NCBI GenBank assembly: GCA_943737045.1
Contig: CALSFV010000007.1
Location: 335,001 to 399,000 of the forward strand
Direction: 5' to 3'
Source of the DNA: Parapristionchus giblindavisi
Lineage: Eukaryota; Nematoda; Chromadorea; Rhabditida; Diplogasteridae
Length of the DNA: 64,000 nt
Shown: piece after piece, positions 6,001-28,439 of the stretch
Position numbering within the stretch: position 1 is the stretch's first letter
Layout: each line of letters begins with the position of its first letter
Program-made: the position numbers and the translations under genes
Notes under the pieces: generated by a model
Database searches by the model: none
What the model was told of the DNA's origin: nothing
Seen by the model: only the letters and a program-made list of their open reading frames with translations

Positions 6001-9000
6001 CTCCTTTTCAGTAACAATTCTTTTGCCCGACTCTTTTTTATCTTCTCTCTTCACTTTTCACTAACACCTTTTGTCTAACTCTCTTCTATTTCCACTCTTT
6101 CACTTTTCACTAACACCTTTTGTCTAACTCTCTTCTATTTCCACACTCTCACTTTTCACTAACACCTTTTGTCTAACTCTCTTCTATTTCCACTCTCTCA
6201 CTTTTCACTAACACCTTTTGTCTAACTCTCTTCTATTTCCACACTCTCACTTTTCACTAACACCTTTTGTCTAACTCTCTTCTATTTCCACACTCTCACT
6301 TTTCACTAACACCTTTTGTCTAACTCTCTTCTATTTCCACACTCTCACTTTTCACTAACACCTTTTGTCTAACTCTCTTCTATTTCCACACTCTCACTTT
6401 TCACTAACGAAAGGTTAAACATCTCCCACTGGCAAGACGCCCGTAAAGAATCTTATATTCAATGCACGGTAGAGATTATTGTAGTAGTTTAAATGAGCGA
6501 CTCCTTTTCAGTAACAATTCTTTTGCCCGACTCTTTTTTATCTTCTCTCTTCACTTTTCACTAACACCTTTTGTCTAACTCTCTTCTATTTCCACTCTCT
6601 CACTTTTCACTAACACCTTTTGTCTAACTCTCTTCTATTTCCACACTCTCACTTTTCACTAACACCTTTTGTCTAACTCTCTTCTATTTCCACTCTCTCA
6701 CTTTTCACTAACACCTTTTGTCTAACTCTCTTCTATTTCCACACTCTCACTTTTCACTAACACCTTTTGTCTAATTCTCTTCTATTTCCACTCTCTCACT
6801 TTTCACTAACACCTTTTGTCTAACTCTCTTCTATTTCCACACTCTCACTTTTCACTAACGAAAGGTTAAACATCTCCCACTGGCAAGACGCCCGTAAAGA
6901 ATCTTATATTCAATGCACGGTAGAGATTATTGTAGTAGTTTAAATGAGCGACTACTTTTCAGTAACAATTCTTTTGCCCGACTCTTTTTTATCTTCTCTC
7001 TTCACTTTTCACTAACACCTTTTGTCTAACTCTCTTCTATTTCCACTCTCTCACTTTTCACTAACACCTTTTGTCTAACTCTCTTCTATTTCCACACTCT
7101 CACTTTTCACTAACGAAAGGTTAAACATCTCCCACTGGCAAGACGCCCGTAAAGAATCTTATATTCAATGCACGGTAGAGATTATTGTAGTAGTTTAAAT
7201 GAGCGACTACTTTTCAGTAACAATTCTTTTGCCCGACTCTTTTTTATCTTCTCTCTTCACTTTTCACTAACACCTTTTGTCTAACTCTCTTCTATTTCCA
7301 CTCTCTCACTTTTCACTAACACCTTTTGTCTAACTCTCTTCTATTTCCACACTCTCACTTTTCACTAACGAAAGGTTAAACATCTCCCACTGGCAAGACG
7401 CCCGTAAAGAATCTTATATTCAATGCACGGTAGAGATTATTGTAGTAGTTTAAATGAGCGACTACTTTTCAGTAACAATTCTTTTGCCCGACTCTTTTTT
7501 ATCTTCTCTCTTCACTTTTCACTAACACCTTTTGTCTAACTCTCTTCTATTTCCACTCTCTCACTTTTCACTAAAACCTTTTGTCTAACTCTCTTCTATT
7601 TCCACACTCTCACTTTTCACTAACACCTTTTGTCTAACTCTCTTCTATTTCCACACTCTCACTTTTCACTTACGAAAGGTTAAACATCTCCCACTGGCAA
7701 GACGCCCGTAAAGAATCTTATATTCAATGCACGGTAGAGATTATTGTAGTAGTTTAAATGAGCGACTACTTTTCAGTAACAATTCTTTTGCCCGACTCTT
7801 TTTTATCTTCTCTCTTCACTTTTCACTAACACCTTTTGTCTAACTCTCTTCTATTTCCACTCTCTCACTTTTCACTAACACCTTTTGTCTAACTCTCTTC
7901 TATTTCCACACTCTCACTTTTCACTAACACCTTTTGTCTAACTCTCCTATTTCCACACTCTCACTTTTCACTAACGAAAGGTTAAACATCTCCCACTGGC
8001 AAGACGCCCGTAAAGAATCTTATATTCAATGCACGGTAGAGATTATTGTAGTAGTTTAAATGAGCGACTACTTTTCAGTAACAATTCTTTTGCCCGACTC
8101 TTTTTTATCTTCTCTCTTCACTTTTCACTAACACCTTTTGTCTAACTCTCTTCTATTTCCACTCTCTCACTTTTCACTAACACCTTTTGTCTAACTCTCT
8201 TCTATTTCCACACTCTCACTTTTCACTAACACCTTTTGTCTAACTCTCTTCTATTTCCACACTCTCACTTTTCACTAACGAAAGGTTAAACATCTCCCAC
8301 TGGCAAGACGCCCGTAAAGAATCTTATATTCAATGCACGGTAGAGATTATTGTAGTAGTTTAAATGAGCGACTACTTTTCAGTAACAATTCTTTTGCCCG
8401 ACTCTTTTTTATCTTCTCTCTTCACTTTTCACTAACACCTTTTGTCTAACTCTCTTCTATTTCCACTCTCTCACTTTTCACTAACACCTTTTGTCTAACT
8501 CTCTTCTATTTCCACACTCTCACTTTTCACTAACACCTTTTGTCTAACTCTCTTCTATTTCCACACTCTCACTTTTCACTAACACCTTTTGTCTAACTCT
8601 CTTCTATTTCCACACTCTCACTTTTCACTAACACCTTTTGTCTAACTCTCTTCTATTTCCACACTCTCACTTTTCACTAACGAAAGGTTAAACATCTCCC
8701 ACTGGCAAGACGCCCGTAAAGAATCTTATATTCAATGCACGGTAGAGATTATTGTAGTAGTTTAAATGAGCGACTCCTTTTCAGTAACAATTCTTTTGCC
8801 CGACTCTTTTTTATCTTCTCTCTTCACTTTTCACTAACACCTTTTGTCTAACTCTCTTCTATTTCCACTCTCTCACTTTTCACTAACACCTTTTGTCTAA
8901 CTCTCTTCTATTTCCACTCTCTCACTTTTCACTAACACCTTTTGTCTAACTCTCTTCTATTTCCACACTCTCACTTTTCACTAACGAAAGGTTAAACATC

Positions 9001-10455
9001 TCCCACTGGCAAGACGCCCGTAAAGAATCTTATATTCAATGCACGGTAGAGATTATTGTAGTAGTTTAAATGAGCGACTCCTTTTCAGTAACAATTCTTT
9101 TGCCCGACTCTTTTTTATCTTCTCTCTTCACTTTTCACTAACACCTTTTGTCTAACTCTCTTCTATTTCCACTCTCTCACTTTTCACTAACACCTTTTGT
9201 CTAACTCTCTTCTATTTCCACACTCTCACTTTTCACTAACACCTTTTGTCTAACTCTCTTCTATTTCCACACTCTCACTTTTCACTAACGAAAGGTTAAA
9301 CATCTCCCACTGGCAAGACGCCCGTAAAGAATCTTATATTCAATGCACGGTAGAGATTATTGTAGTAGTTTAAATGAGCGACTCCTTTTCAGTAAAAATT
9401 CTTTTGCCCGACTCTTTTTTATCTTCTCTCTTCACTTTTCACTAACACCTTTTGTCTAACTCTCTTCTATTTCCACTCTCTCACTTTTCACTAACACCTT
9501 TTGTCTAACTCTCTTCTATTTCCACACTCTCACTTTTCACTAACACCTTTTGTCTAACTCTCTTCTATTTCCACACTCTCACTTTTCACTAACACCTTTT
9601 GTCTAACTCTCTTCTATTTCCACACTCTCACTTTTCACTAACGAAAGGTTAAACATCTCCCACTGGCAAGACGCCCGTAAAGAATCTTATATTCAATGCA
9701 CGGTAGAGATTATTGTAGTAGTTTAAATGAGCGACTCCTTTTCAGTAACAATTCTTTTGCCCGACTCTTTTTTATCTTCTCTCTTCACTTTTCACTAACA
9801 CCTTTTGTCTAACTCTCTTCTATTTCCACTCTCTCACTTTTCACTAACACCTTTTGTCTAACTCTCTTCTATTTCCACACTCTCACTTTTCACTAACGAA
9901 AGGTTAAACATCTCCCACTGGCAAGACGCCCGTAAAGAATCTTATATTCAATGCACGGTAGAGATTATTGTAGTAGTTTAAATGAGCGACTCCTTTTCAG
10001 TAACAATTCTTTTGCCCGACTCTTTTTTATCTTCTCTCTTCACTTTTCACTAACACCTTTTGTCTAACTCTCTTCTATTTCCACTCTCTCACTTTTCACT
10101 AACACCTTTTGTCTAACTCTCTTCTATTTCCACACTCTCACTTTTCACTAACACCTTTTGTCTAACTCTCTTCTATTTCCACACTCTCACTTTTCACTAA
10201 CACCTTTTGTCTAACTCTCTTCTATTTCCACACTCTCACTTTTCACTAACACCTTTTGTCTAACTCTCTTCTATTTCCACACTCTCACTTTTCACTAACG
10301 AAAGGTTAAACATCTCCCACTGGCAAGACGCCCGTAAAGAATCTTATATTCAATGCACGGTAGAGATTATTGTAGTAGTTTAAATGAGCGACTCCTTTTC
10401 AGTAACAATTCTTTTGCCCGACTCTTTTTTATCTTCTCTCTTCACTTTTCACTAA
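1..10455 (+). repeat. 49-bp satellite with interspersed 160-bp module
   Basis: Tandem array of a 49-bp unit (TTTTGTCTAACTCTCTTCTA, then TTTCCACACTCTCACTTTTC, then ACTAACACC), strongly pyrimidine-rich on the plus strand. At 28 places a unit ends in CTAAC and runs straight into a ~160-bp module starting GAAAGGTTAAACATCTCCCA and ending in CACTTTTCACTAACACC. Module starts: 634, 889, 1144, 1741, 1996, 2741, 3192, 3545, 3800, 4153, 4324 (shortened), 4997, 5301, 5605, 5909, 6409, 6860, 7115, 7370, 7674, 7976, 8280, 8682, 8986, 9290, 9643, 9898 and 10300. Units differ mainly by CACACTCTC versus CACTCTCTC and CTATTT versus CAATTT. No coding potential is seen. The array continues past the left edge. 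It could be centromeric, subtelomeric or simply heterochromatic; no TTAGGC telomere repeat is present. Confidence 0.97.
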
Positions 10456-11310
10456 CTCCTTTTGCCTAACTCTTATTTTCCATACACTGTCGCTTTTCAC
10501 TGACGCTCCTTTGGCCTAAATCTTTCCTTTTCCATACACTCTCGTTTTTCACTAACTCTTCTTTCGACCAACTCTTTCGTTTTGTGATATGAAAAGCCGA
10601 GTTTTAAAAGATCAAAGATCAAAATAACAATACAAATATGCATTGAATGATTGAAATACGAAAGTTGATTGATCGCATTCATCCACTCACTATATCACTA
10701 TGTCTACTCATTCATTCCACCTCAGATTCTTCCTTCATTCATATGATCTTTGATCTTTGATCTTTGATCTCTTTATGATATCAACTGGCACATTCATTCT
10801 ATACACTACTGTTAGTCACTTGATTAGCTAATAAACGAGTAGATAGATGGTCTCAACTAAATTTCTGATTACTCTCGACATGATGAGGTCTCGTACAAGA
10901 CGTCACTTCTACCTTGAATAATTCTTCATTCATTCCTTTGGTCAAACTCTCGTCTTTTTCCATACTCCATCGCTTTTCACTAACGAAAGGTCGAACATGT
11001 CCCCACTGGGAAGACGTCCGTAGAGAATCTTATATTCACTACACGGTAGAGATGATAGAGTAGGTTAAATGATCTATTCCTTTTCAATAAACCTTCTTTT
11101 GTCCGACTCTTTTCTTTTTCCATCCTCTCTCACTTTTCACTAACTCTTCTTTCGACCAACTCTTTCGTTTTGTGATATGAAAAGCCGAGTTTTAAAAGAT
11201 CAAAGATCAAAATATCAATACAAATATGCATTGAATGATTGAAATACGAAAGTTGATCTCTTCTGTACCGTGTTTTCTTGTAAAACGCATAAATATTATT
11301 ATTATTATTA
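10456..11310. repeat. Degenerate satellite and GATCAAA composite repeat
   Basis: Decayed 49-mers give way to a composite unit: the TTCGACCAACTCTTTCG segment, an AAAGATCAAAGATCAAA block, a spacer, then a TTTGATCTTTGATC block (inverted relative to the first), then GGCACATTC and GTTAGTCACTTGAT. A diverged copy of the 160-bp satellite module begins at 10986 (GAAAGGTCGAACATGTCCCC). A second partial composite unit follows at 11145-11260. The same composite unit recurs at about 15350, 16390, 17757, 18384 and 19400, so this is one repeat family. No gene is seen here. Confidence 0.8.
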
Positions 11311-11905
11311 CTGAGTAATTCTTGTCATTCTTGTGATACTACCCGTCCTTCCTCGTACCTTAACAATGCCTTCTCCATCCATTCCTTGTTGTTTCACAAC
11401 GGTGACCCTTTAACCCTCACCGGTTCCATTCTTGCCATTGAACCCAACCCAGCCCGTAGACAAATTACTGAAGCTTGGTATATTAGATCCTTGAACCCAT
11501 CTTTGACCACCAGAGAAGAGCTTTCCTCTGACCACGCCCCTGTGACCTTCATTACATTGAATCTATAATACTCTCTCGCCTTGTTATTCACTATTAGCTG
11601 ACCTCTCTCCTTCTCCCTTGTCCTTCTCTCCCTCTTCCTCCCTCTCACTCTATATCCAACACGCATTGGCGTCCCATTCACCCAGTCATTCATTTACCCA
11701 GTCATATCCTTAGATTGCTTGTGTCTCATATTTGTTTGTTTTCCATGATCATATTGTTCTTGTAGGTAATTCTTCCATCTGATTATGATATGATTATTGT
11801 ATCGAAACGTCATATAAATATATCTATAATTCTTCTTGTCAAGTATTCGGATACACTCAGAAACATTCTATATTATATATCAAAAGATTGACAAGAATTA
11901 CTCAG
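11311..11905. mobile_element. TA-flanked element with short terminal inverted repeats
   Basis: The ends are exact inverted repeats, CTGAGTAATTCTTGTCA on the left and its complement on the right, each flanked by TA (11309-11310 and 11906-11907). That is the arrangement expected of a Tc1/mariner-type insertion. The 595-bp interior contains no transposase, but does hold a short open frame resembling the end of a GIY-YIG endonuclease (separate entry). The TIRs are short (17 bp) compared with the long-armed MITEs elsewhere in this window. Confidence 0.65.
11386..11568 (+). pseudogene. GIY-YIG endonuclease C-terminal fragment, Penelope-like (tentative)
   Basis: A 60-codon open frame ends in a stretch with the pattern R-R-Q-I-x-E-A-W-Y-I-R-S-L-N-P-S-L. 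This resembles the end of the GIY-YIG nuclease domain of Penelope-like retroelements (…EA-x-x-I-x-x-x-x-P-x-L…). The GIY-YIG core, the reverse transcriptase and any start context are missing, so it can only be a relic. It lies inside a TA-flanked element and may have been captured by it. The identification rests on one motif and is uncertain; a chance open frame is the alternative. Confidence 0.4.
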
Positions 11906-12344
11906 TACATTACGTTCATGAAAAAAAAATTACATACAATATATTGCGAGAACCACAATATATTGTATATAAATCTAGAGCATCTATGACATAATTACGG
12001 CAAGCTGGCGTGAAGGATGACTTTCAGCAAATTATATTTTAGTCAATCTTTTAGTTAGACTTTCAGTCGATTTAGTCAATCACTTAAGTGCTCTTGAACA
12101 GAAGCTGTCGCACAGAACAATAAAATAATATCGAACGAAGAAATAAAATCCAAAATCAGCGACCTCCTAAAAGTAGGCACCAGAACAATTGTAGTGATGG
12201 GTGTGAAAAGAGCTGAGAAATCAGAGACCTACAATCGAATTACTCTATGTTAAAACTGTGTGAATATATTAGAAAACCCCATGAACGAGACATCAAATTA
12301 TACATATAATTATCATTATTTTGTCTGATGGCGCACTAAAAATA

Positions 12345-12701
12345 GTGGAAAACGGAAAATGGCGACTTTCCAGGGTCTAAAAAAGCACATGGAAACTCGA
12401 CAATTTGAATTCGCGGGCGCGAAAAAAGGTGCGGGAATTCAAATTCCGGCTTTCCAACTGCGGTTTTCTGCGATTTAAAAAGGATGTAAAGTAGGAATTT
12501 AAGTTCTTACGCTTCATAAAGGTCGGAAAATGAAATTTCGGTTTTATATAAGTTTTATAACCGCAGAAAATCCAGTTAGAAAGTCAGAATTTGAATTCCC
12601 GCGCCTTATTCGCGCCCGCGAATTCAAATTTCGAGTTACCATTTTCGGTTTTCCAGTGTACTTTTTTAGACCCCGGAAAGTCGCCATTTTCCGTTTTCCA
12701 C
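12345..12701. mobile_element. TA-flanked MITE, 357 bp
   Basis: Long terminal inverted repeats start GTGGAAAACGGAAAATGGCG on the left and end with the complement on the right, both flanked by TA (12343-12344, 12702-12703). The arms also share GAATTCGCGGGCGCG and AAATTC blocks, so most of the element can fold back on itself. There is no coding capacity. Likely a non-autonomous Tc1/mariner-type element. Confidence 0.75.
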
Positions 12702-12703
12702 TA

Positions 12704-13300
12704 TTTGTTTCATATATCGGTCCTCTATGTATATTCCTTTTTTAAACTCTGAACTCTATCAGCCCTCTCTAAAGGAAAAGAAAGTGAGAGAGAGAGAGAG
12801 TAAGCATAGAACAATTCGTACAGTGCAGTCTTGAATGTGGCCGAATGTATACCTTATAACACTCTCTCGCTGCGAAATAAAAACAATGACAAATGATATG
12901 TGAAATCGTTGGTATGAATAAAATGGACTAATTTTCAGTAATGTTTTTATGAATACCAAGAATATGGCGATCTCCGCTAAAGGACTTTCGATAATCCTCA
13001 AAAAACTGACAACATAAACGATCGCCGCTAGCACAGAAAATATCGGATATAGAGCCTGTATCGTGAGTATCTGGAAAAAAGAGTACAAGTAGTTCTAAAA
13101 CAATGCACTCATAAGGTATTTTGACTGATTTTGACTGTCACTATGACAATAACTTTGACTGTTTCTTTGACAGTTACTTTTACAATGGAATTGAAAATGT
13201 CTTTGACAATGACTTCGGGCGTAATTAGATTGGCTAAATGACTATGCGCGATAGACAGGTGTCAGACGCCAGGTGCCAGAAAACAAACAACCTTTTTTAC
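12704..13300. other. Intergenic, no gene recognised
   Basis: AT-rich sequence with a short GA run (12783-12800) and a cluster of TTTGACTG/TTTGACAG words around 13120-13210. Open frames here lack splice-compatible neighbours or any recognisable family. Nothing supportable is seen. Confidence 0.6.
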
Positions 13301-15339
13301 ATATCACGGGTCTTCTCTAAAAACGTAGGAAAATGAGACGTTTTCCCGACAGTTTTTAAATTTTTCTCACCGATTTGGATGAGATTTATATGACTGACCA
13401 TAGTGAGATAAAAGAGAAGGCCTTGAGACTTGGTTTCGCCAAATTTGCATTTTTATCGATTTTTTGATCTTCCACTTCGGGCAGCCATATCTCACTCAGA
13501 TTTTGACCTACAGCAAGAAATTATTTTTCAATCGACTCGAAATGAACTAATCTAGAAGTTACTCAACAGAGGATACGGGCAAAAATGCCGTCTTCTATCT
13601 GTTTTCTTCGAAAAACTGATTTTTTAAGTACAATATGCTAATTTTCTCAAAATTTTTCAACAAAGGATACGATTTTTATTCGCGATTCTGATTCCCCATC
13701 CTCGAATTGAGGTACGCACATATTTCATCAGTCATAATTCACGACAAGCCATATCGATCCTTAGAGAGAGCCGGACTTTGCGTTATTTTCATTCAAAACT
13801 ACATTTCTAATCTCATCTCTCTTCATTCTCATGCAAATTTGCAATCAAGTATACCATTCGAAAGCTCTCGACGAGCTCCACAAAAATGACTCAGTAGTAC
13901 GAGTCATGAAATTTGTTCATATTCAAGATATTCTAGAAAATCCGTTTTTTTCACTAGCAATTGTTGTGCAATGTAATCGATTCACAACGAAACATTGCTC
14001 TTTGCTTTCTCCAATGTGTTTTTCTTAAATTATTTGTTAATAACATTAAAGGAAAGAACAACAAATAAAATAGCAAAAATTTTTATTTATCTGAGATATT
14101 CATCATTGAAAAATACGCTTTCTGAAATTCAGAGGCGTTGGAAAGGGAATGAGAGTAACGGGATTGAAAGGAATCACTAGTTCCGTCCCTTGTCGATGTA
14201 CTGGAGGAGATTCGAGTGCCGAATGAAGCTGGAAAAGTACTGACTGGTTGCGAAGAGAGGGTAAGAGGGTGTCAGTCTCATGACACGGACTTGCCCAATC
14301 ACTGATTCATCGTCCATATTGTCGGGCTCTATAGTCGACTGCTTGGTAAATACGGAAGAACCAGAAATGAGGCTCATCTCTGTTGGCAATCTTCTGCTTG
14401 TCATCATCCCTCAGACCATCACCTGACAACTTGCCTCCATGACTGTGGAAAGTGATGGAACTAGTGATTCCTTTCTGTTCCGTTACTTTCATTCCCTTTC
14501 CAACGCCTCTGAATTTCAGAAAGCGTATTTTTCAACGATGAATATCTCAGATAAATAAACATTTTTGCTATTTTATTTGTTGTTCTTTCCTTTAATATTA
14601 TTAACAAATAATTTAAGAAAACACATTGGAGAAAGCAAAGAGCAATGTTTCGTTGTGAATCGATTACATTGCACAACAATTGCTAGTGAGAGAAAAAACG
14701 GATTTTCTAGAATATCTTGAATACGAACAAATTTCATGACTTGTACTACGGAGTCATTTTATAGAGCTCGTCGAGAGTGTTCGAATGGTATACTTTGATT
14801 GCAAATTTGCATGAAAATGAAGAGAGATGAGATTAGAAATGTAGTTTTGAATGAAAATAACGCAAAGTCCGGCTCTCACTAAGGATCGATATGATATATG
14901 AATTATGACTGATGAAATATGTACGTACCTCAATTCGAGGATGGGGAATCAGAATCGCGAATAAAAATCGTATCCTTTGTTGAAAAATTTTGAGAAAATT
15001 AGTATATTGTACTTAAAAAATCAGTTTTTCGAAGAAAACAGATAGAAGACGGCATTTTTGCCCGTATCCTTTGTTGAGTAACTTCTAGATTAGTTCATTT
15101 CGAGTCGATTGAAAAATAATTTCTTGCTGTAGGTCAAAATCTGAGTGAGATATGGCTGTCCGAAGAGGAAGATCAAAAAATCGATAAAAATGCAAATTTG
15201 GCGAAACCAAGTCTCAAGGCCTTCTCCTTTATCTCACTATGGTCAGTCATATAAATCTCATCCAAATCGGTGAGAAAAATTTAAAAACTGTCGGGAAAAG
15301 GTCTCATTTTCCTACGTTTTTACAGGAGACCCGTGATAT
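13301..15339. mobile_element. 2-kb foldback element with ~880-bp inverted arms
   Basis: Left arm 13301-14184 and right arm 14457-15339 are near-perfect inverted copies, from ATATCACGGGTC at the outer edge to GGAATCACTAGTTCC at the inner edge. They differ by scattered substitutions and a few small indels. Only the ~272-bp centre is unique. The whole is flanked by satellite-related repeats. A transcript across it would make a very long hairpin. No transposase is present in the arms; the centre holds a short minus-strand open frame (separate entry). Foldback transposon or palindromic duplication are both possible. Confidence 0.8.
14177..14407 (-). other. Open frame at the centre of the foldback element
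   Basis: A 76-codon minus-strand frame covers nearly all of the unique centre and ends just inside the left arm. The later part reads like ordinary protein (M-D-D-E-S-V-I-G-Q-V-R-V-M-R-L…), unlike the AT-biased translations around it. It may be a fragment of a host gene trapped between the arms. No family is recognised and no splice sites clearly bound it. The reading could be accidental. Confidence 0.3.
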
Positions 15340-16810
15340 AGAATAGCGGATTTTCATAAGATCAAAGATCAAAATAACAATACAAATATGCATTGAATGA
15401 TTGAAATACGAAAGTTGATTGATCGCATTCATCCACTCACTATATCACTATGTCAACTCATTTATTCCATTCCTCTTCCTTCATTCATATGATCTTTGAT
15501 CTTTGATCTTTGATCTCTTTATGATATCAACTGGCACATTCATTCTATACACTACTGTTAGTCACTTTATTTGCTAATAAACGAGTAGATAGATGGTTGC
15601 AACTAAATGAAAGATTAGTCTGGTCGTGTTGAGGTCTCATACAATTGGTTCACTTCTATCTTGAATAATTCTTCGTGCATTCCTTTAGTCTATCTGTCTG
15701 CTTTTCCATACTTTCTCTCGCTTTTGACTAACTCCTTTTTCCTAACTCTGCTTTTTCCGTACTCTCTCGCTTTTGACTAACTCCTTTTTCCTAACTCTGC
15801 TTTTTCCGTACTCTCTCGCTTTTGACTAACTCCTTTTTCCTAACTCTCTTCTTTTCCCATGCTCTCTCACTTTTCTCTAACTCTACTTTTGTCCGAATCT
15901 CTCCTTTTGTATATGGAATGGTATTTATGATATCAACTGGCACATTCAGTCTGTACACTACTGTTAGTCACTTGATTAGCTAATAAACGAGTAGATAGAT
16001 GGTCGCAACTAAATTTCTGATTACTCTCGACATGATGAGGTCTCGTACAAGACGTCACTTCTACCTTGAATAATTCTTCATTCATTCCTTTGGTCAAACT
16101 CTCGTCTTTTTCCATACTCGATCGCTTTTCACTAACGAAAGGTCGAACATTTAATGTGATGTACAGTATACATATAACAACATGCAAATGTACTCTAGTA
16201 ATATTATATAACATGCAATATAGAACTAGTTAAGGCCCCGCTGTTTCGGCCCACTGGGAAGACGTCCGTAGAGAATCTTATATTCACTACACGGTAGAGA
16301 TGATAGAGTATGTTAAATGATCTATTCCTTTTCAATAAACCTTCTTTTGTCCGACTCTTTTCTTTTTCCATCCTCTCTCACTTTTCACTAACTCTTCTTT
16401 CGACCAACTCTTTCGTTTTGTGATATGAAAAGCAGAGTTTTAAAAGATCAAAGATCAAAATATCAATACAAATATGCATTGAATGACTGAAATACGAAAG
16501 TCGATTGATCGCATTCATCCACTCACTATATCACTATGTCAACTGATTTATTCCACATCAGATTCTTCCTTCATTCATATGATCTTTGATCTTTGATCTT
16601 TGATCCCTTTATGTTATTAGCTGGCACATTCTGTCTATACAGTAACTTTAGTCACTTGATTTGCAAATAAACTAGTAGATAGATGGCTTCTAGAAAGGGA
16701 TCATTTTGCGCTGTTCATCTTGATTCGGTGAGAGAAGAGATCAACTAGAGATGGATCGATCACGACCGATACGGACGAAAAGAACCATGAATTTAGCGTT
16801 ACGAAAATGG
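15340..16810. repeat. GATCAAA composite repeats and decayed satellite
   Basis: Another copy of the composite unit (AAGATCAAAGATCAAAAT at about 15359, TTTGATCTTTGATCTTTGATC at about 15490) is followed by short degenerate units of CTAACTCCTTTTTCCTAACTCTG (15720-15850), a copy of the GTTAGTCACTTGATTAGC block, and a diverged 160-bp module starting at 16136. That module is interrupted by about 100 bp of unrelated AT-rich DNA (about 16152-16250). A further composite unit runs from 16388. No gene is seen. Confidence 0.75.
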
Positions 16811-19760
16811 TTTTCACTAGCTCCTTTGGTTTAACTCTCTTCTATTTCCACACTCTCACTTTTCACTAACACCTTTTGTCTAACTCTCTTCTATTTCCAC
16901 ACTCTCACTTTTCACTAACACCTTTTGTCTAACTATCTTCTATTTCCACACTCTCTCACTTTTCACTAACACCTTTTGTCTAACTCTCTTCTATTTCCAC
17001 ACTCTCTCACTTTTCATTAACACCTTTTGTCTAACTCTCTTCTATTTCCACACTCTCACTTTTCACTAACACCTTTTGTCTAACTCTCTTCTATTTCCAC
17101 ACTCTCACTTTTCACTAACACCTTTTGTCTAACTCTCTTCTATTTCCACACTCTCACTTTTCACTAACACCTTTTGTCTAACTCTCTTCTATTTCCACAC
17201 TCTCACTTTTCACTAACACCTTTTGTCTAACTCTCTTCTATTTCCACACTCTCACTTTTCACTAACACCTTTTGTCTAACTCTCTTCTATTTCCACACTC
17301 TCACTTTTCACTAACACCTTTTGTCTAACTCTCTTCTATTTCCACACTCTCACTTTTCACTAACACCTTTTGTCTAACTCTCTTCTATTTCCACACTCTC
17401 ACTTTTCACTAACACCTTTTGTCTAACTCTCTTCTATTTCCACACTCTCTCACTTTTCACTAACACCTTTTGTCTAACTCTCTTCTATTTCCACACTCTC
17501 ACTTTTCACTAACACCTTTTGTCTAACTCTCTTCTATTTCCACACTCTCACTTTTCACTAACACCTTTTGTCTAACTCTCTTCTATTTCCACACTCTCAC
17601 TTTTCACTAACACCTTTTGTCTAACTCTCTTCTATTTCCACACTCTCACTTTTCACTAACACCTTTTGTCTAACTCTCTTCTATTTCCACACTCTCACTT
17701 TTCACTAACACCTTTTGTCTAACTCTCTTCTATTTCCACACTCTCACTTTTCACTAACTCTTCTTTCTACCAACTCTTTCGTTTTGTGATATGAAAAGCA
17801 GAGTTTTAAAAGATCAAAGATCAAAATATCAATACAAATATGCATTGAATGACTGAAATACGAAAGTCGATTGATCGCATTCATCCACTCACTATATCAC
17901 TATGTCAACTGATTTATTCCACATCAGATTCTTCCTTCATTCATATGATCTTTGATCTTTGATCTTTGATCCCTTTATGTTATTAGCTGGCACATTCTGT
18001 CTATACAGTAACTTTAGTCACTTGATTTGCAAATAAACTAGTACATAGATGGCTTCTAGAAAGGGATCATTTTGCGCTGTTCATCTTGATTCGGTGAGAG
18101 AAGAGATCAACTAGAGATGGATCGATCACGACCGATACGGACGAAAAGAACCATGAATTTAGCGTTACGAAAATGTTTTTCACTAGCTCCTTTGGTTTAA
18201 CTCTCTTCTATTTCCACACTCTCACTTTTCACTAACACCTTTTGTCTAACTCTCTTCTATTTCCACACTCTCACATTTCACTAACACCTTTTGTCTAACT
18301 CTCTTCTATTTCCACACTCTCACTTTTCACTAACACCTTTTGTCTAACTCTCTTCTATTTCCACACTCTCTCACTTTTCACTAACTCTTCTTTCTACCAA
18401 CTCTTTCGTTTTGTGATATGAAAAGCAGAGTTTTAAAAGATCAAAGATCAAAATATCAATACAAATATGCATTGAATGACTGAAATACGAAAGTCGATTG
18501 ATCGCATTCATCCACTCACTATATCACTATGTCAACTGATTTATTCCACATCAGATTCTTCCTTCATTCATATGATCTTTGATCTTTGATCTTTGATCCC
18601 TTTATGTTATTAGCTGGCACATTCTGTCTATACAGTAACTTTAGTCACTTGATTTGCAAATAAACTAGTAGATAGATGGCTTCTAGAAAGTGATCATTTT
18701 GCGCTGTTCATCTTGATTCGGTGAGAGAAGAGATCAACTAGAGATGGATCGATCACGACCGATACGGACGAAAAGAACCATGAATTTAGCGTTACGAAAA
18801 TGGTTTTCACTAGCTCCTTTGGTTTAACTCTCTTCTATTTCCACACTCTCACTTTTCACTAACACCTTTTGTCTAACTCTCTTCTATTTCCACACTCTCA
18901 CTTTTCACTAACACCTTTTGTCTAACTATCTTCTATTTCCACACTCTCACACTTTTCACTAACACCTTTTGTCTAACTCTCTTCTATTTCCACACTCTCT
19001 CACTTTTCATTAACACCTTTTGTCTAACTCTCTTCTATTTCCACACTCTCACTTTTCACTAACACCTTTTGTCTAACTCTCTTCTATTTCCACACTCTCA
19101 CTTTTCACTAACACCTTTTGTCTAACTCTCTTCTATTTCCACACTCTCACTTTTCACTAACACCTTTTGTCTAACTCTCTTCTATTTCCACACTCTCACT
19201 TTTCACTAACACCTTTGTCTAACTCTCTTCTATTTCCACACTCTCTCACTTTTCACTAACACCTTTTGTCTAACTCTCTTCTATTTCCACACTCTCACTT
19301 TTCACTAACTCCTTTAGCCTAACTCTTATTTTCCATACACTATCGCTTTTCAGTGACGCTCCTTTGGCCTAAGTCTTTCCTTTTCCATACACTCTCGTTT
19401 TTCACTAACTCTTCTTTCGACCAACTCTTTCGTTTTGTGATATGAAAAGCCGAGTTTTAAAAGATCAAAGATCAAAATATAAATACAAATATGCATTGAA
19501 TGATTGAAATACGAAAGTTGATTGATCGCATTCATCCACTCACTATATCACTATGTCTACTCATTCATTCCACCTCAGATTCTTCCTTCATTCATATGAT
19601 CTTTGATCTTTGATCTCTTTATGATATCGCACATTCAGTCTATACACTACTGTTAGTCACTTGATTTGTTGAGGTCTCATAAAATGGGTCACTTCTATCT
19701 TGAATAATTCTTCATTCATTCCTTTGGTCAATCTCTCTGCTTTTCCGTACTTTCTCCCGT
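16811..19760. repeat. Second satellite array with a higher-order unit
   Basis: Blocks of the same 49-bp satellite (about 16830-17756, 18200-18383, 18830-19309), including 51-bp variants with an extra CT, alternate with ~430-bp composite units. These run from TCTTCTTTCTACCAACTC through the two GATCAAA blocks to GTTACGAAAATG…CACTAGCTCC. They begin at about 16388, 17757 and 18384 and are nearly identical, so the cassette 'composite plus satellite block' has been duplicated as a whole. A more diverged composite closes the array at 19310-19760. The 160-bp module of the first array is absent here. Confidence 0.88.
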
Positions 19761-19959: not shown

Positions 19960-22900
19960 ATGTCGAGTCTAGTGAAAGAATATAAGAAACGTTGTGAAAA
20001 AAATGGAGACCTTCTCCCGAATCTTGGTATGACAATCTTCTTCATAATGACAATCAAAATAATCTCTTATTTCACATTTCACTGATTTTAACACATGTCA
20101 CTATCTCATCAGATTGACTGCAAACTTTCTAATATATGTAATAATCTATTGAGGTAAATGACTAATACTTTGTTAAATTTCTTAGAAGGAACCAATAAGA
20201 AGAATTCAAGAAAGGGATATTGCGTGCATTGTTACACAATGTACGCTAATCTCTCACCTCACTTAAACACTCATCAATTGACTCCACGACAAGTTAGTCA
20301 AATAATACAAACAAGTAGAATGTGATTTATACCATGATATTATCAGAGAAACGCTGCCATTGTGATGAACAAAAAGATCACAGCAACCGTTGATCTCAAA
20401 GGAATTCCTCGAGTCAAGACGAAGCGGGAGCAGAAGATATTGAATGAATTGATTGTACGCATGAGAGATAATGGAGTTCTTGTCCGATCGTATAACAAGG
20501 TATCTTTTATACATCATTTCAATACTCAAAAGTAAAAATGAAATATGATTCTAACCAATGAGTGATACTATTTTATCATTTCAAATTTCATATCTTTCGA
20601 CCAAACGAACACCGTATCAAATCAAATAAATAAAACACCGTATCCTTCTAATAAACTTTGTTTAAATCCATTTGTAACTAGAGAAGGATGAGAGTCGAGA
20701 GCGAGAGAATAAAAGAGAAAAAGAGAATCAGATAGATCATCCTAGAAATACATCGCGATCCCAATGAGCATTTTGCAAGAATATTTTTCGAAAAAAGTGA
20801 GAGAGTATAGAAATCGAGGAGATTAGAGAAAAGTTAGACAGTGCGGAAATCGAAGAAAATATAGAAAAGTGAGAGAGTATTTAAATCTAGGAGAGTTAGA
20901 CAAATGGAAAGACAGAGAAAAGTGATGGAGTTTGGATTAAGATGAGTTTTCGACAAACAAATTAATAAAAAAATCTTTCTCCTTCTTAAGATTAAAGATC
21001 AAAATGTAAACAATAACAAATATTTAAGCGACGGCATCGTTATATAAGGAAGAGAAGTGATAGAAGAGATAGTGAAGAAGTAGATAATAATGAAGAAATT
21101 GATGGAAGAGAAGAAGTAGGAGAAGATGAAGAACATCAACCAGAGGATGTCGAAGATGAACAAGAAGAAGAAGAAGGCAAATATACAAATAAATTATTGA
21201 TTATTTATACTTATCATTTTTATAGGTGATATGATGGAAGATATGGTGGATTATGAAGATCAAGAATATATTAATGAAAACAACGAAATCATTACACACG
21301 ATGTCGACAACATCTACAACCAGTACATTTTTTGCACTAATCAATAGATAAATATGCAATATTTAGTATGCCTGATCTACGATTAATCTATCTCGCAAAC
21401 AACGACGATAACTCTCAAACATGTACAGTACCAGGTATGCTATCCAATATAAATGACATGATTGATCTTTGATCTTTGAGCTCGCAATAAGCAGCCATGG
21501 CGAGAGACTGCTGATGAGATTATGAAATGGTCAATAATACTAAAAGCAGATTATCCTGTAATAGAAAGATTCAGGTTATTTAAATATAATCAATATATGA
21601 AAAAGAAAATAATTTCAGTGATTTTCTATCCAACGAACAAGATGATGATGAATTCGATTTTGCTCTGAACAACTCAAGACAACGAAACTATCTCTACGCT
21701 ATGAGAAGATTCACGTTATACAGTATGAGAGCAAGAGAACGGTAATTCATTCTATATTTCGATATAGATCATAACAATATACAGTACTGCAGAATCCCCC
21801 AGTGAAAATGGGCGCCCCGGGTGACCCGGGGAGCCCATGAGGCCCCTCGATTATTTACGCTTTGAATGATGAATATCAGCCTTTCAAATTGTTTGAGTTG
21901 TTTTACTCCAGATTTGATTGAATTTATCAATTAAAGTTTGGAATTTTTAAATGCTTGTCAACTGAATTGTGATAAGAAAAAGAAATGCTGTGAAGATTTC
22001 ACTTTGCGATAGAATTTGCCGAGCGTGCGCGAGTTATGCAAAATTTTCGCGCGGCATTTGCCAAAAATTAATAAAAAATATAATTTTCAATATTTTTTCT
22101 CAGGCTACGTAATTTATAAAATTCCAAAATTTCTTTGATTAATTCCGTCAACTCTGGAGTAAAACAACGCAAACAATTTGAAAGGCTGATATTCATCATT
22201 CAAAGCGTAAAAAATCGAGGGGCCTCATGGGCTCCCCGGGTCACCCGGGGCGCCCATTTTCACTGGGGGATTCTGCTGTACTGTATATAAAACTCTTTGA
22301 AGGCTCTTTGAAATCTTTGAAGACACTAAAAATGCGGAAAATGACGTTCAAATGTTCGGTTAAAATGTCTGAAAAATCTCGAGCAATATGGCTTGTCATT
22401 TTAGAAGTATCACGAGCAATTTACACAACTAAATTAAGTCATATGAAAACCAAAAATTATGTAAATCAAGTTTTCCGCATTTTCCTAATGAAATTTGATC
22501 ATCATTTTCCGCATTTTGTGTGTTTGACGTTAGAATAATGCATCAGGAACGGCGAGAATCCAACCATTGATGATGTCATCTTCTCATCCTCGGTATTATC
22601 TCGAGTTTACAATGACATGAAGGGATGCAAAATTGGAATATCAACAAGAAAGAACCTTCTGGTTTCGATCATCGCCTTCACTAAATTTGCCTCGACCGTG
22701 CACACTTCTCACAGTGAGACATTGATTAATGATGAAAAGACGTGAGACAAAAGAAATACAAAGAAAATCTCCTCAGTTTTATACTCTCTCGCATATATGA
22801 ACATAAGAGAAGAGATAAATAGAGCATAGGTACGTTAATATGCCCTAATCAACCTATATTTGAGGAGCATCGATGATTCGGCGTGAGGCAGCTCAGACAA

Positions 22901-25900
22901 TGGCGACAACCGCTCGCACATTGTTACAAACTGTCCAGAGGACAATCCATAGAAGAGCCGCTCGAACTGATCAAGTTAGTCGATATACACGTTAAATGGC
23001 ATATATGATAACTGTTGTTAATAGGAAGAACAATCTATTGTACACTATTCGGTCCTGAGGAATCTCGTAGAAGATATCCGAATTGTACAAGAACTTAATA
23101 ATATTGATCAGCAAGAGATAGTCATCGAAGAAGACTGGAATCGTGCACTATCGTATTAATCTTGATTTACATAACAATTTCAATGAAATTACATTAAGTC
23201 TTACAATAACTCCGATTATTGTGAAGAATGCCTCTCGAGGAGAAGCTGTTTATAAGATGAAAACCAAAGATATTCAAAATAAAGATGGAGCGATGATTGA
23301 AAGAAGAAACAATGAGGATTTTGTGGTATTAACATAACTACACTGTATTCTATCAATCAATCAGTTATAGGTCATTCAATATGACAATCCAAAGACATCT
23401 AATATCTCCCGTTATCCCACACCGGGATATATTGTATGGGATGATCAACTCATCTCTATAACAACGATCTACCTTCGGATACGAACGAGGTTTACTTCAA
23501 AATAAAATAATGTAAATCAAATAAAATACTATTTAGACTAGTAGAACAAAAGAACCAAGAAGGAAGTCCTATCCACAGTCATCTACTCTTCGTATCGTAC
23601 AAGGTCAGTGTTTACAATTGCCAATTGCCGATTTATTTAAAGATCAAAGATCAATCAATAATCTATTCACAAGATATTTATGTAAAGAATAAAGATTAAT
23701 CAATATTATTTTCATAAATTCCTATGCAAAAGATGCACTCTATGAATATTTTTACGTGAAAGATCAAAGATTAAAAAACAAGATTTATTAACTCAAAAGG
23801 CAAATATATTTTATGATTACTTAATATTAGATTGAAATTTGCAGGGACACTCATTGGAGCCGAATCGATCACCCAATGTCAACATATTGCTGAAGCAATT
23901 CGGAAATATTGCAACAACATCGAAAAAGTCAATCTTCAGCTCAAACAAAGTACATTATATGCACAAAATTCATGATCATACATTAATCAATTGTAGATAA
24001 GAAAATCAGCTGCACAATTAGGTTACGACGAGCAGCTGCGAGTATTGATAAATGAACTGGAGAACAGGAGAGAGCTGCCCTTCCTCATGGGCCACTCCTC
24101 TCATATACACAATAGCGAATACGTGGTCTCCAAAAGGTATATTATTATTAACATTTTTGTTAATATTAAATTAATTTCAGAGATATGGCCATGGCCGCGT
24201 ATCGGCTATTATCCAAGATGTCTAAAGAGACTTCCGATGATCATTATAATGAATTCCTCTCTTATGTCATCGTCGATTATGATGATGATGATGAAGAAAT
24301 TGATGTTAATAATGATAACATCAATATCAATAATATCGATGTGATGAATGATGAAGGAGGACGTGAAGGAGAGACTGATGATCAAACTAATGGATTTGGA
24401 AACGGTTATGAAAATGAAGAGGATCTACATTATGGTAATGGACATGTAGAATAGAGATAATGGAGAGTATGAAATTTAGATGGAAATAACGATGTTGATG
24501 CTGATAGAAATAGATCAAATCGATTCGTCGATGATGATGATTATGATAATGGTTTCAACAATGGAAATGTGTTCAACAATGGAGTGAATGGCATTATGGG
24601 AGGAGAATATGAAATAGAGGAACCTGATGATCATCGATTTGATGGAGATAAGGAGAATGACATTTACAATCAATATTATTGTAATGGAGATGTAAAATAG
24701 AGAGAGTATGATGACAGAAATTCAGATGAAGATGCAGGAAATAATGAAGATGTTGGTGATGGAGATGATTATGAGAATGATAACAATGATGATCATATGA
24801 TAGACAATACATACTATAAAAGAGAAAGATTGGGAGGATATGAAAGAGATGAGATTGATGACCAACAAACTCCAGTTGATGCAGGTAATGAGAATAATAA
24901 TAACATTCAATATTGTGATGATAATGGAGATATAAATAGATGATATGAATAATGGTAAAAATTTAGATGAGCAAGCAGGAACTGTTGATGGAGTAGAGAG
25001 AGATAAAAGGAAACAATCCACACATATTCGTTTCCCTGACGACGATGATGATGAACAAAGAGATAATGGACCTAATAATACTAAAGATGGAATGAAGAAT
25101 GATAATGATGAGAAAGTAGATGGAATAAATGGAAATCGTCTCATTCACGGTATTCATAGTAAACACATAATTAATGTCTATTCATTTCGTTATAGCTACG
25201 AGTAGAAGATTGAGATCACGTAGATCATCAGTAGTTGTCGATAATGATGAAGATGGAGAAGAAGAGGGACTCGCACAAGGGTATGTTGTGGATAATGCAT
25301 GACCTTCAAAAATCGCGAGAAGAAATGAAAATAAAGGGTGGAGAAGAGGAGAACCTGCTCTTTTTTTTTCTTTTCGCGATTTTTGAAGAGAAAATCAGAT
25401 CTAATCGAGTGAACTAAATGTATATATTTCAGAATGGTCAAGGAAGACGATATTGATAGAATAAGAACTCTTTTGATGTTACGTAAAAAGTTGAATAAAG
25501 AGGATAAGTCATTCATGAAAATGACTCTATCAGAGTTGCTCAAAGATAAGAAAGCAGAGAAGGAATTAATGGATAGATCAGATGGAATAGTTGATAGAGT
25601 AAAGGTATTCTTTGAGCAATATATCGTCCAAAATAATCGATTATATAGCTGCAGGAAGAAAAAAATGCAATGTTAATTTTTAAACCATAATTATTCAGGG
25701 ACCAATTCAAAACTGGCCGTCGATCTTTTTATATCAAAGCAAAAGCATTGGAATAGGCGTCAGAGCTCGACGAAACCTAATGGCAGGAGTTGTGGTTGCC
25801 GATTATGGGTATCATAATAATCAATCGATCTAATCAACATTATTATTCATTTAGCTATGCTTATTGTCCACTCAAAGAAAGTCTGAAGTACGGTATAGAA

Positions 25901-26619
25901 TTGGGCAAAGTTAGTCCATCAAAAGAGGATTACTACGCGAGTTACGTGATGGATGCTAGAGTTGGTAAGATGTGCATTATATACGAGGTCTATGGAAGCA
26001 AAATGGATTTCGTACACTTGAATCATTAATATTTTTTGAATAAGTAAATGATAAGTAGACTCATTAAGTGACTATTTAGATGGGAAGAAGATGGTCCAAG
26101 AAGGGCATATGCTGACACGAGAAGGGGTAGTGACTGTGGGAAGATACTTTAATCATTCACGGTGCAAACAACACTGCAATCTGATAATAAAGGGAGTGAG
26201 CTTTGATCTGGGAGGAAAACGGAGAAGACATATGACGGTTTTCGTCACTAAGAGAGAAATAATGGTATCGTACATTCTATTCATTCTATCACTCATATTA
26301 ATGTACTTTATAGAAGGATGAACAGTTGCTATATGATTACGGCACCCACTCTGACGACACCTCCTATTACAACTCCTGTCCAGCCTGCAGTGATGCTGGA
26401 GATGCTGGTACAACATGCTAATATACACCAATCAATAATCTATCATATTACAGAAGGAGATGGAAAGGAGCTTGTATTGATTAAGCCTCCAATCGATCCA
26501 ACCAACCCCGAACACGGTAATCAATATAATAGAAATCGATAGATTATGTATCTATTATAGAGACATTCTTCCCTGAGTACACTGGAAACGGATCGGGATG
26601 GAAGAAGATCAAATCGTAA
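19960..26619 (+). CDS. Tyrosine recombinase-SET domain fusion protein, 28 exons, ~1164 aa
   Basis: Function unknown. Exons: 19960-20026, 20186-20292, 20347-20499, 21029-21176, 21226-21322, 21367-21434, 21481-21574, 21619-21741, 22547-22713, 22865-22974, 23025-23152, 23199-23325, 23371-23489, 23537-23603, 23845-23949, 23997-24136, 24181-24434, 24480-24680, 24726-24884, 24967-25149, 25196-25280, 25433-25604, 25699-25808, 25855-25964, 26080-26264, 26314-26407, 26454-26516, 26561-26619. Their sum is 3495 nt, in phase throughout. Seen: C2H2-like finger (C35, C38, H48, H52); acidic linker; tyrosine recombinase with box I R434, K471 after Asn-Pro, N559-K-I-R562 where the family has H-x-x-R, G-H593-S, and nucleophile Y602; Asn/Asp-rich region ~625-900; SET domain ~959-1110 with G-I-G (976-978), F-N-H-S (1055-1058) and L-L-Y-D-Y-G. 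The SET domain most resembles KMT5A/SET8. Inference: a domesticated Crypton/DIRS-type recombinase fused to a histone methyltransferase. Weakest points: the exon 9/10 junction and the GC donor after exon 4. Confidence 0.78.
20770..20935 (-). repeat. Inverted, decayed satellite copies in intron 3 of the recombinase-SET gene
   Basis: Three or so diverged repeats of AAAAGTGAGAGAGTAT…GA…AAGTTAGAC read as the reverse complement of the 49-bp satellite unit (GTCTAACTCTCTTC…CTCTCACTTTT). They lie within the 20500-21028 intron, on the opposite strand to the main array. They show that the satellite, or its ancestor, spread into the neighbouring gene. Confidence 0.6.
21782..22283. mobile_element. TA-flanked foldback MITE in intron 8
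   Basis: Terminal inverted repeats start CAGTACTGCAGAATCCCCCA and end with the near-complement, flanked by TA at 21780-21781 and 22284-22285. CAGT termini and TA duplication are the Tc1/mariner pattern. Arms extend about 190 bp and include a GC-rich sub-palindrome (GGGCGCCCCGGGTGACCCGG) unlike the AT-rich surroundings. The element accounts for most of the unusually long 21742-22546 intron. The short open frame in its right arm is not a gene. Confidence 0.85.
24420..24970 (+). repeat. Repeated exon-intron units in the acidic region
   Basis: Introns 17 (24435-24479) and 18 (24681-24725) are both 45 nt and clearly related (GTAATGGACATGTAGAATAG versus GTAATGGAGATGTAAAATAG, both ending near GAAATT[T/C]AG). 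A third copy of that intron sequence (TAATGGAGATATAAATAG…AAAAATTTAG) forms the 3' part of intron 19. The exons between them encode similar Asn/Asp/Gly-rich peptides. The acidic part of the protein therefore grew by duplication of whole exon-intron units. Confidence 0.65.
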
Positions 26620-27268: not shown

Positions 27269-28227
27269 TATATCATCTTTTTTTCATCCAACATATATCT
27301 AACTCCTGTATATACCAGCTTAGTCACATTTGCGTCTAATCTAACCTGTTCTATAATATATTGTACATTCCTACGCCTTAACGTTACCAATACAACTCGC
27401 CTATCTCCCTATTTATTATCTTGTCACCAGTGCTCATATTGAACTTATTTCCCCTCTTCTACTTACAAAATACGCTTACACATCGTCATTCTTTCCATTC
27501 TCTTTGTCATGTATAATACTCTGTGAATTCTGCATTTGTTTCAATAACTATATTAACCTATTAATTCTCTCACTAACATCACTCTAACAATCCATTTGAT
27601 GAGAATTCTTCTACAATGGGGTAGTTCAGTCCAAAGAAAGTAGAGTTCAGTCAAAAGTTCCATCACTCAGTCCAATCTATTATGCTAGGCTCTCACAAGG
27701 AAAGATAGAACAAGATTAGAGTGAGAATAAAAGTAAACCAAAATATTCACTAACCATGGTTTTGGTAAATTGAATAAAAAGAAAAAAAAGGAGAGTAGAA
27801 CCAATCAGCCATCAAGAGAGCGGAGCACAAGATGTAACGTCCGTTAGAGAGTAAAAAAGAAAATCTGAAAAGATCAAGATGAGATTGAAATGTATTATAG
27901 GAAAATAAGATTGGAAAATAAAAAATTCTCTTTTCAAAAAGACATATCTTTAAATAAAATGAAACTTTTGGACTATTATTCGATTAGTTATTCGAGTAAT
28001 GATCTGCTAAAGCCTCTCTCTCATTTAGAACAAACTATTCAATCAATCAATAGTGAAGAGACGATGTAGATGAGGAAGAGATGGACACAAGAGAAGAACG
28101 GCCAGAGACCCTATAAAGGATGAAATTATAAACATCATAGATCAAGATTAATTTAGGGATGAACAATCATCAGTTAAATCATCAAAGGATAATTATCATT
28201 ATGACAATCAATGGTTGATTAGAGTAA
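27269..28227. other. Intergenic, no gene recognised
   Basis: AT-rich DNA. Translations lack family similarity and consistent splice sites. Nothing further can be supported. Confidence 0.5.
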
Positions 28228-28305
28228 TGTGGTGTTACATTGCACGTTTTGAAATGCACGCCGTGCGCACGGCGTGCATTTCAAAACGTGCAATGTAACA
28301 CCACA
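28228..28305. mobile_element. Perfect 78-bp palindrome with TAA duplication
   Basis: Two 39-nt arms are exact inverted complements with no spacer; the centre is CCGTGC/GCACGG. TAA occurs on both sides (28225-28227 and 28306-28308). A related stretch nearby (from about 28374, GATTAGAGTAAGAGATGACTG) looks like the empty site. A 3-bp TAA target duplication fits PIF/Harbinger-type insertion. It could be a minimal MITE consisting only of its inverted ends. Confidence 0.75.
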
Positions 28306-28439
28306 TAAGGGATGACTGTCCATAGAAGTCAAAAGATCAAAGATCAATCATTCAATTCTGAAATCAATGATTGATTAGAGTAAGAGATGACTGTCCATAG
28401 AACTACAAAGATCAAAGATCAATCATTGATTTGTCATTT

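What the first reader, a model, noticed from the sequence alone, without database searches (positions are those of the whole stretch)
19960..26619. A tyrosine recombinase fused to a SET-domain methyltransferase
One 28-exon model, in phase through all 27 junctions, joins a zinc finger, a tyrosine recombinase domain with R434/K471/R562/H593/Y602, a long acidic stretch and a SET domain with G-I-G, N-H-S and Y-D-Y-G motifs. I know of no family with this architecture. If real, a DNA-recombining enzyme has been tied to a chromatin-modifying one. A gene beside a large satellite array, in a phylum where some species eliminate repeats in somatic cells, makes a role in genome rearrangement or heterochromatin worth testing. 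That link is speculation.
Basis: partly seen in the sequence, partly recalled or inferred. Interest (0 to 1): 0.92.

Follow-up and report, generated by a model that had tools for sequence, protein, structure and literature searches.

The report
Nematode recombinase-SET fusion gene family
A nematode gene of 28 exons appears to join a zinc finger, a DNA-recombinase-like domain and a histone-methyltransferase-like domain in one protein, and the same genome holds diverged sister genes of the same build, so the fusion looks like a real gene family and not a chance reading.

Summary
SET is certain (Pfam E 3.5e-9). The recombinase part matches no library. Its support is indirect: three genes about 25% identical keep R, NxxR, H and Y, a motif scan lands on most of them, and a weak profile alignment has R, H and Y in register. 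Fusion: two further distinct loci carry finger, recombinase part and SET in that order, share 8 recombinase-part introns in phase order and 4 SET introns exactly, have conserved linker exons, and dN/dS 0.15 and 0.25. Five other SET-bearing relatives show no recombinase part. Best reading: a host gene family, a SETMAR analogue built on a tyrosine recombinase, which binds DNA and methylates protein there. Expression, catalysis and any role in DNA elimination are untested. No eukaryotic proteome could be searched, so novelty worldwide is open.

The parts
19960..26619 (+). whole coding model, 28 exons, 1164 aa
   Evidence: recovered exon for exon by my spliced aligner, with the model protein itself as query
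20186..20292 (+). exon 2, zinc-finger-like CxxC...HxxxH
   Evidence: read from translation; Pfam sub-threshold; paralogs also have a CxxC/HxxxH finger upstream, but it did not align column for column with this one
21029..21574 (+). exons 4-7, acidic stretch and linker before the recombinase-like region
21619..24310 (+). exons 8-17 (part), tyrosine-recombinase-like region, residues 245-650
23236..23238 (+). codon of R434 (first arginine, SRGEA; paralogs QRNEA)
   Evidence: chosen by the motif scan
23392..23394 (+). codon of K471, proposed lysine; not one conserved column in the family
24000..24002 (+). codon of R562 (NxxR box)
   Evidence: the motif scan preferred R575 in this protein but the equivalent of R562 in both paralogs
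24093..24095 (+). codon of H593 (GHSS box)
24120..24122 (+). codon of Y602, proposed nucleophile, 9 residues after H as in XerD
24181..25149 (+). exons 17-20: end of the recombinase-like region, then acidic Asp/Asn-rich linker
   Evidence: paralogs also have acidic coding stretches after the recombinase part
25196..25280 (+). exon 21, linker TSRRLRSRRSSVVVDNDED, similar to a linker stretch of the C686 paralog
   Evidence: 68% over 19 residues, E 0.04 in a small search
25433..25604 (+). exon 22, conserved stretch before SET; its phase-2 acceptor is shared with the paralogs
25750..26343 (+). SET domain (Pfam stretch, residues 976-1103), exons 23-26
26344..26407 (+). CxxC after SET, post-SET-like, end of exon 26

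Best explanation
A single nematode host gene, one of a small family, encodes a zinc finger, a diverged tyrosine-recombinase domain and a SET methyltransferase domain. Shown: the in-phase model, the SET match, sister loci with the same order, shared introns and linker exons, and purifying selection between two sister genes. Inferred: the recombinase domain was taken from a mobile element long ago, and with the zinc finger it holds the protein on particular DNA, while SET methylates a histone or other protein there (as SETMAR unites a transposase-derived DNA binder with SET). Because R, R, H and Y are kept, the domain may still cut and rejoin DNA, but this is not shown.
For: Model and residues. 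SET Pfam hit and weak PDB matches to KMT2, KMT5A and others. Relatives in the genome; finger, recombinase part and SET in order at two more distinct loci. First arginine, NxxR arginine, histidine and tyrosine invariant in 3 of 3 genes at about 25% identity. Intron phases 2,1,0,2,0,2,0,0 in all three recombinase regions (8 of 8 paralog introns matched in order, 4 at the same column) and 4 of 4 paralog SET introns at the same column and phase. Coding segments conserved between the two paralogs through the linker. dN/dS 0.148 (recombinase part) and 0.247 (SET) for that pair. Motif scan: 25, 105 and 53 of 2000 shuffles reach the real score for window region, C128 and C686. hhalign: 5 of 160 column shuffles reach the score, 0 of 160 have R, H and Y all in register, as the real one has.
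Against: No recombinase hit in Pfam, PHROGs, NCBIfam or PDB. hhalign's own probability is 0.6%; the first arginine lies outside its match. The scan chose R575 over R562 in the window protein and R193 as first arginine in C686. The lysine is not one column and HxxR is NxxR. The link between window and paralog recombinase parts is itself weak by sequence: tblastn E 1.8e-5 and about 0.024, and the C128 recombinase query did not bring back the window gene at E 0.01. The window gene has two introns that the paralogs lack within the compared spans. No transcript data. dS of the recombinase pair is saturated (2.16). Paralog models come from my own aligner, first seeded with the window protein.
Confidence: 0.68

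Rival explanations
1. Two neighbouring genes, a recombinase-like gene and a SET gene, perhaps in an operon, with the SET gene starting by trans-splicing at the TTTCAG|AATG of exon 22.
For: Exon 22 begins with an acceptor and an ATG. Five SET-bearing relatives lack a detectable recombinase part. No RNA data.
Against: The exon 22 acceptor is a phase-2 intron shared with two paralogs that have no ATG there; exon 21 resembles paralog linker; coding segments are conserved between the paralogs through the linker, with a shared GTGA candidate donor at the end of the last recombinase exon (my reading); finger and SET lie together in two relatives without a recombinase part (L018, L019).
Confidence: 0.13
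2. The middle domain is a helical DNA-binding or protein-binding domain that only looks like a tyrosine recombinase; the motifs are coincidence.
For: No profile or PDB match; the motif scan is only modestly better than shuffles, and its spacing limits were set by me.
Against: Residues invariant in a family at about 25% identity include R, the NxxR arginine, H and Y, with XerD's H-to-Y spacing of 9; 0 of 160 column shuffles put R, H and Y in register.
Confidence: 0.14
3. The gene is carried by a living transposon (a Crypton-like element that acquired SET) and not by the host.
For: The genome holds 78 recombinase (PF00589) matches at E 1, 64 of them over the family cut-off; relatives are multicopy, clustered and partly broken.
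Against: Introns shared in phase with relatives about 25% identical; no close copy of the window gene among SET-region matches, the best other match being under 50% identical; the only near-identical copies (C128, C7 end, C145) share upstream flanks at 100% (2.3-2.5 kb compared) and downstream sequence at 99.96-99.98%, as segmental or assembly duplicates do; purifying selection.
Confidence: 0.08

Closest known systems
SETMAR/Metnase (SET fused to the Hsmar1 mariner transposase, primates)
   Same: A SET methyltransferase and a mobile-element DNA enzyme in one host protein; PMC9062482 (passages seen) says TIR binding is kept and TIR-specific cleavage lost.
   Different: SETMAR is SET, then a mariner transposase (a DDE-type enzyme, recalled); here zinc finger, tyrosine-recombinase-like domain, then SET. 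Here most catalytic residues appear kept.
Crypton-derived DUF3504 genes (KCTD1, KIAA1958, ZMYM2-4, QRICH1, WOC)
   Same: Tyrosine recombinase domain domesticated in animals and joined to other domains (PMC3212892, abstract and passages).
   Different: Those lost most of R-H-R-Y; here R, R, H and Y remain. DUF3504 was not among the Pfam hits here; the genome search for it was negative too, but its controls were silent.
Nematode YR elements (PAT and others)
   Same: Tyrosine recombinases in nematodes (PMC4157794, passages); this genome has many recombinase matches.
   Different: The open frames I could read (4 of 10 fetched loci) have HxLRxGG...GRW...Y, whereas this family reads NxxR...HSS...Y.
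KMT2 and KMT5A SET enzymes
   Same: Best PDB matches to the SET part.
   Different: Weak similarity; NH(S/A)RC in the three full genes in place of the usual NHSC (visible in the KMT2A alignment); different architecture.

Membership tests
Tyrosine recombinase | First arginine in a conserved box | tested here: met
   NA(S/Q)R(G/N)EA invariant arginine in 3 of 3 full genes; the scan gives it in the window and C128 proteins but another position (R193) in C686
Tyrosine recombinase | Beta-hairpin lysine | tested here: inconclusive
   K471 present, but the column is not lysine in all relatives
Tyrosine recombinase | HxxR box | tested here: inconclusive
   Arginine met, histidine replaced by asparagine in 3 of 3
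Tyrosine recombinase | H/W and nucleophilic Y, about 9 apart | tested here: met
   H and Y invariant in 3 of 3, spacing 9
Tyrosine recombinase | Profile or sequence match to known members | tested here: not met
   hhalign only weak. I therefore write recombinase-like and do not file it as a proven member
Tyrosine recombinase | Fold | not testable with these tools
SET methyltransferase | Pfam SET above cut-off | tested here: met
   37.5 bits against 22.4
SET methyltransferase | GxG, NHxxC-like and YxY motifs | tested here: met
   GIG, NHSRC, YDYG in the window gene; GLG, NHARC, YEY in the C128 and C686 genes; eroded in some relatives without recombinase
SETMAR | Mariner transposase after SET | tested here: not met
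   domain order and type differ; no transposase family among Pfam hits
DUF3504 / Crypton-derived genes | Match to DUF3504 | tested here: not met
   not among Pfam hits of the window protein, the C128 or the C686 recombinase parts
YR transposon (Crypton, DIRS, PAT) | Element ends, reverse transcriptase or repeats around the gene | not tested
   no element boundary or reverse-transcriptase search; only copies and flanks compared

The most novel reading that the evidence does not exclude
A catalytically live tyrosine recombinase kept by the host, coupled to its own chromatin writer, so that marked DNA (for instance satellites) is cut, rejoined or removed in a programmed way: a candidate for the unknown breakage machinery of nematode DNA elimination.
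Probability: 0.08. Interest if true: 0.96.

Novelty: new variant of a known kind. Interest (0 to 1): 0.76.

Why it matters
The clearest known host protein that unites a mobile-element DNA enzyme with a SET methyltransferase is SETMAR, which has lost specific cleavage (PMC9062482, passages). A second, independent case built on a tyrosine recombinase, with most of its catalytic residues kept, would show that this coupling arises repeatedly and would make a DNA-targeted methyltransferase, or a host recombinase, directly testable in a nematode. A 2023 review says that the machinery of DNA breaks in metazoan DNA elimination is largely unknown (PMC9894435, passages).

Tried and rejected
Protein database searches with the recombinase region, the three-gene alignment and the SET alignment found nothing at E 1, 10 and 1. 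Since even the SET alignment found nothing, I take that database to be poor in eukaryotes and draw no conclusion from it. Recombinase profiles: Pfam, PHROGs, NCBIfam and PDB all negative. An intronless copy of the family: no open frame of 160 aa or more spanning it in the 11 loci examined. A SET domain behind the two C7:1681-1691 kb copies: not found in the next 3 kb either. The copies at the C7 end and on C145 were dropped from counts as duplicates of the C128 gene. A fragment at C128:110 kb (L053) was left out of the sorting. Structure prediction was not run: the tool admits only contiguous translations. Papers on this fusion: none among those listed (titles and starts of abstracts seen).

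Species: not identified. TTAGGC arrays fit a nematode (recalled); the rRNA and cox1 searches did not complete.

Full report
What was checked. I translated the region in three frames, placed donors and acceptors by hand and rebuilt the gene; the finding gives no exon table. One of the 27 introns uses GC-AG, the other 26 GT-AG. Exons are richer in GC than introns (0.39 against 0.29), 18 of 27 introns are 44-54 nt long, and retention of any of the 27 would break the frame or add a stop.

The SET half. Pfam SET matches residues 976-1103 at E 3.5e-9, over the curated cut-off. Against solved structures the window SET region and a six-row alignment match KMT2 and KMT5A chains among others, weakly (best E 0.0039 and 1.3e-5). 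GIG, NHSRC and YDYG are present, followed by CxxC.

The recombinase half. No library recognises it: Pfam, PHROGs, NCBIfam and PDB give no recombinase. Three indirect tests speak for it. First, in the alignment of the three full genes the first arginine, the NxxR arginine, the HSS histidine and the tyrosine are invariant at about 25% identity. Second, a scoring matrix made from seven E. coli and phage recombinases (A5), run with order and spacing limits that I chose, picks R434 and H593/Y602 in the window protein (but R575 in place of R562), R179/R314/H346/Y355 in the C128 gene, and R314/H346/Y355 in the C686 gene (but R193 as first arginine). Shuffles reach the real score in 25 of 2000 (residues 245-660), 52 of 2000 (whole window protein), 105 of 2000 (C128) and 53 of 2000 (C686). 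Third, profile-profile alignment has a probability of only 0.6% and 5 of 160 column shuffles score as high, yet the real alignment has the second arginine, histidine and tyrosine in register; 3 of 160 shuffles have two of them and 0 of 160 all three. Against it: the first arginine lies outside that alignment, the lysine is not one conserved column, and the usual histidine of HxxR is asparagine. I call it recombinase-like.

Relatives in the same genome. The window lies at C7:335001-399000 of a 251 Mb assembly. Searches with SET and recombinase parts found relatives on C128, C686, C683, C145, C13 and the far end of C7. The direct similarity is weak: tblastn of the window protein gives E 1.8e-5 (residues 531-638, C686) and about 0.024 (417-441, C128) in the recombinase part; the C128 recombinase query did not bring back the window gene at E 0.01, while the C686 SET query did, at E 9.7e-5. 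My own search with the window's recombinase region did not complete. With a spliced aligner of my own and tblastn I sorted the relatives. SET-bearing distinct loci: 8 (window, C128:13-21 kb, C686, four more on C128, C683). Of these, 3 of 8 carry the recombinase part; in 5 of 8 none was found at E 0.1 in the roughly 3 kb held upstream of SET. A finger was found in 5 of 8: window by eye, C128, C686, L018, L019; L014 has only the stretch before it. Window and paralog fingers do not fall in the same alignment columns. The C128:13-21 kb gene has near-identical copies at the end of C7 and on C145, counted once. Two tandem copies at C7:1681-1691 kb have the first two thirds of the recombinase part, a finger that is complete in one of them, and neither the last recombinase exon nor SET; C7:1715 kb has a finger and a truncated recombinase part, with what looks like an internal deletion; C13 has fragments.

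Is it one gene? Between the window gene and the C128 and C686 genes, the 8 paralog introns in the recombinase part have phases 2,1,0,2,0,2,0,0, as have eight window introns in the same order; 4 lie at the same alignment column, the others 3 to 17 columns apart where the alignment has gaps or is poor. In the SET part 4 of 4 paralog introns fall at the same column and phase. The window gene has one extra intron within each span (after exon 16 and after exon 22). The paralog models were first seeded with the window protein and refined against each other, so some bias is possible, but splice sites and frames come from the DNA. Between C128 and C686 the stretch from the last recombinase exon to SET holds several conserved coding segments (best E 1.5e-21) and a shared candidate donor after that exon; window exon 21 resembles part of the C686 linker. 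The acceptor before exon 22, which could pass for a trans-splice start because ATG follows it, is a shared phase-2 intron without ATG in the paralogs. One transcript is therefore likely, but no RNA was available.

Selection. C128 against C686: dN/dS 0.148 in the recombinase part (dS 2.16, saturated) and 0.247 in SET (dS 0.70). The nine other SET pairs compared run from 0.28 to 0.59. The window gene itself was not tested. Some relatives without recombinase have lost SET motifs.

Host gene or transposon. The genome has 78 PF00589 matches at E 1, 64 over the cut-off, so possible donors of a recombinase exist. The four open frames that I could read out of ten fetched loci show HxLRxGG...GRW...Y, unlike this family. 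Shared introns, selection, local clusters and the lack of a close copy of the window gene favour a host family.

Mechanism. Most likely the finger and recombinase-like domain bind particular DNA and the SET domain methylates a nearby protein. This is inference by analogy with SETMAR, where binding is kept and specific cleavage lost (PMC9062482, passages). The domesticated Crypton-derived genes lost most catalytic residues (PMC3212892, abstract and passages); here R, R, H and Y are kept, so catalysis remains possible.

Surroundings. A 49-bp satellite fills 1-10299 and smaller arrays reach 19436, about 0.5 kb before the gene. TTAGGC arrays (166 forward and 733 reverse matches, 0 for the control) fit a nematode. 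Whether this species eliminates DNA is not known to me, and nothing here ties the gene to the satellite.

Limits. No eukaryotic proteome, no RNA and no structure model were available. Four paper searches with recombinase, integrase or transposase plus SET terms listed nothing on this fusion, judged from titles and starts of abstracts.

Noticed in passing
window 21777-22288: Foldback element in intron 8: 171-nt inverted arms, 94% complementary, 170 nt apart; no match at E 1e-5 in the paralog loci compared.
   Followed up: partly
window 28227-28306: Perfect 80-bp palindrome with no spacer.
   Followed up: no
window 45012-45520: U6 (minus) and U1 (plus) snRNA genes side by side.
   Followed up: no
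window 1-19436: 49-bp satellite with longer periods such as 255 and 304 bp; PMC9894435 says Toxocara canis eliminates a 49-bp satellite (passage); the sequences were not compared.
   Followed up: no
L011, L013, L014, L018, L019: SET-bearing relatives without detectable recombinase part; L013 and L014 have RH in place of NH in the SET motif, suggesting loss of activity.
   Followed up: partly
L016 and L012: dS differs strongly between the recombinase part (2.16) and SET (0.70) of the same gene pair, which may mean gene conversion in SET.
   Followed up: no
   Followed up: no
L052: Several fragments of the later recombinase exons on C13.
   Followed up: partly
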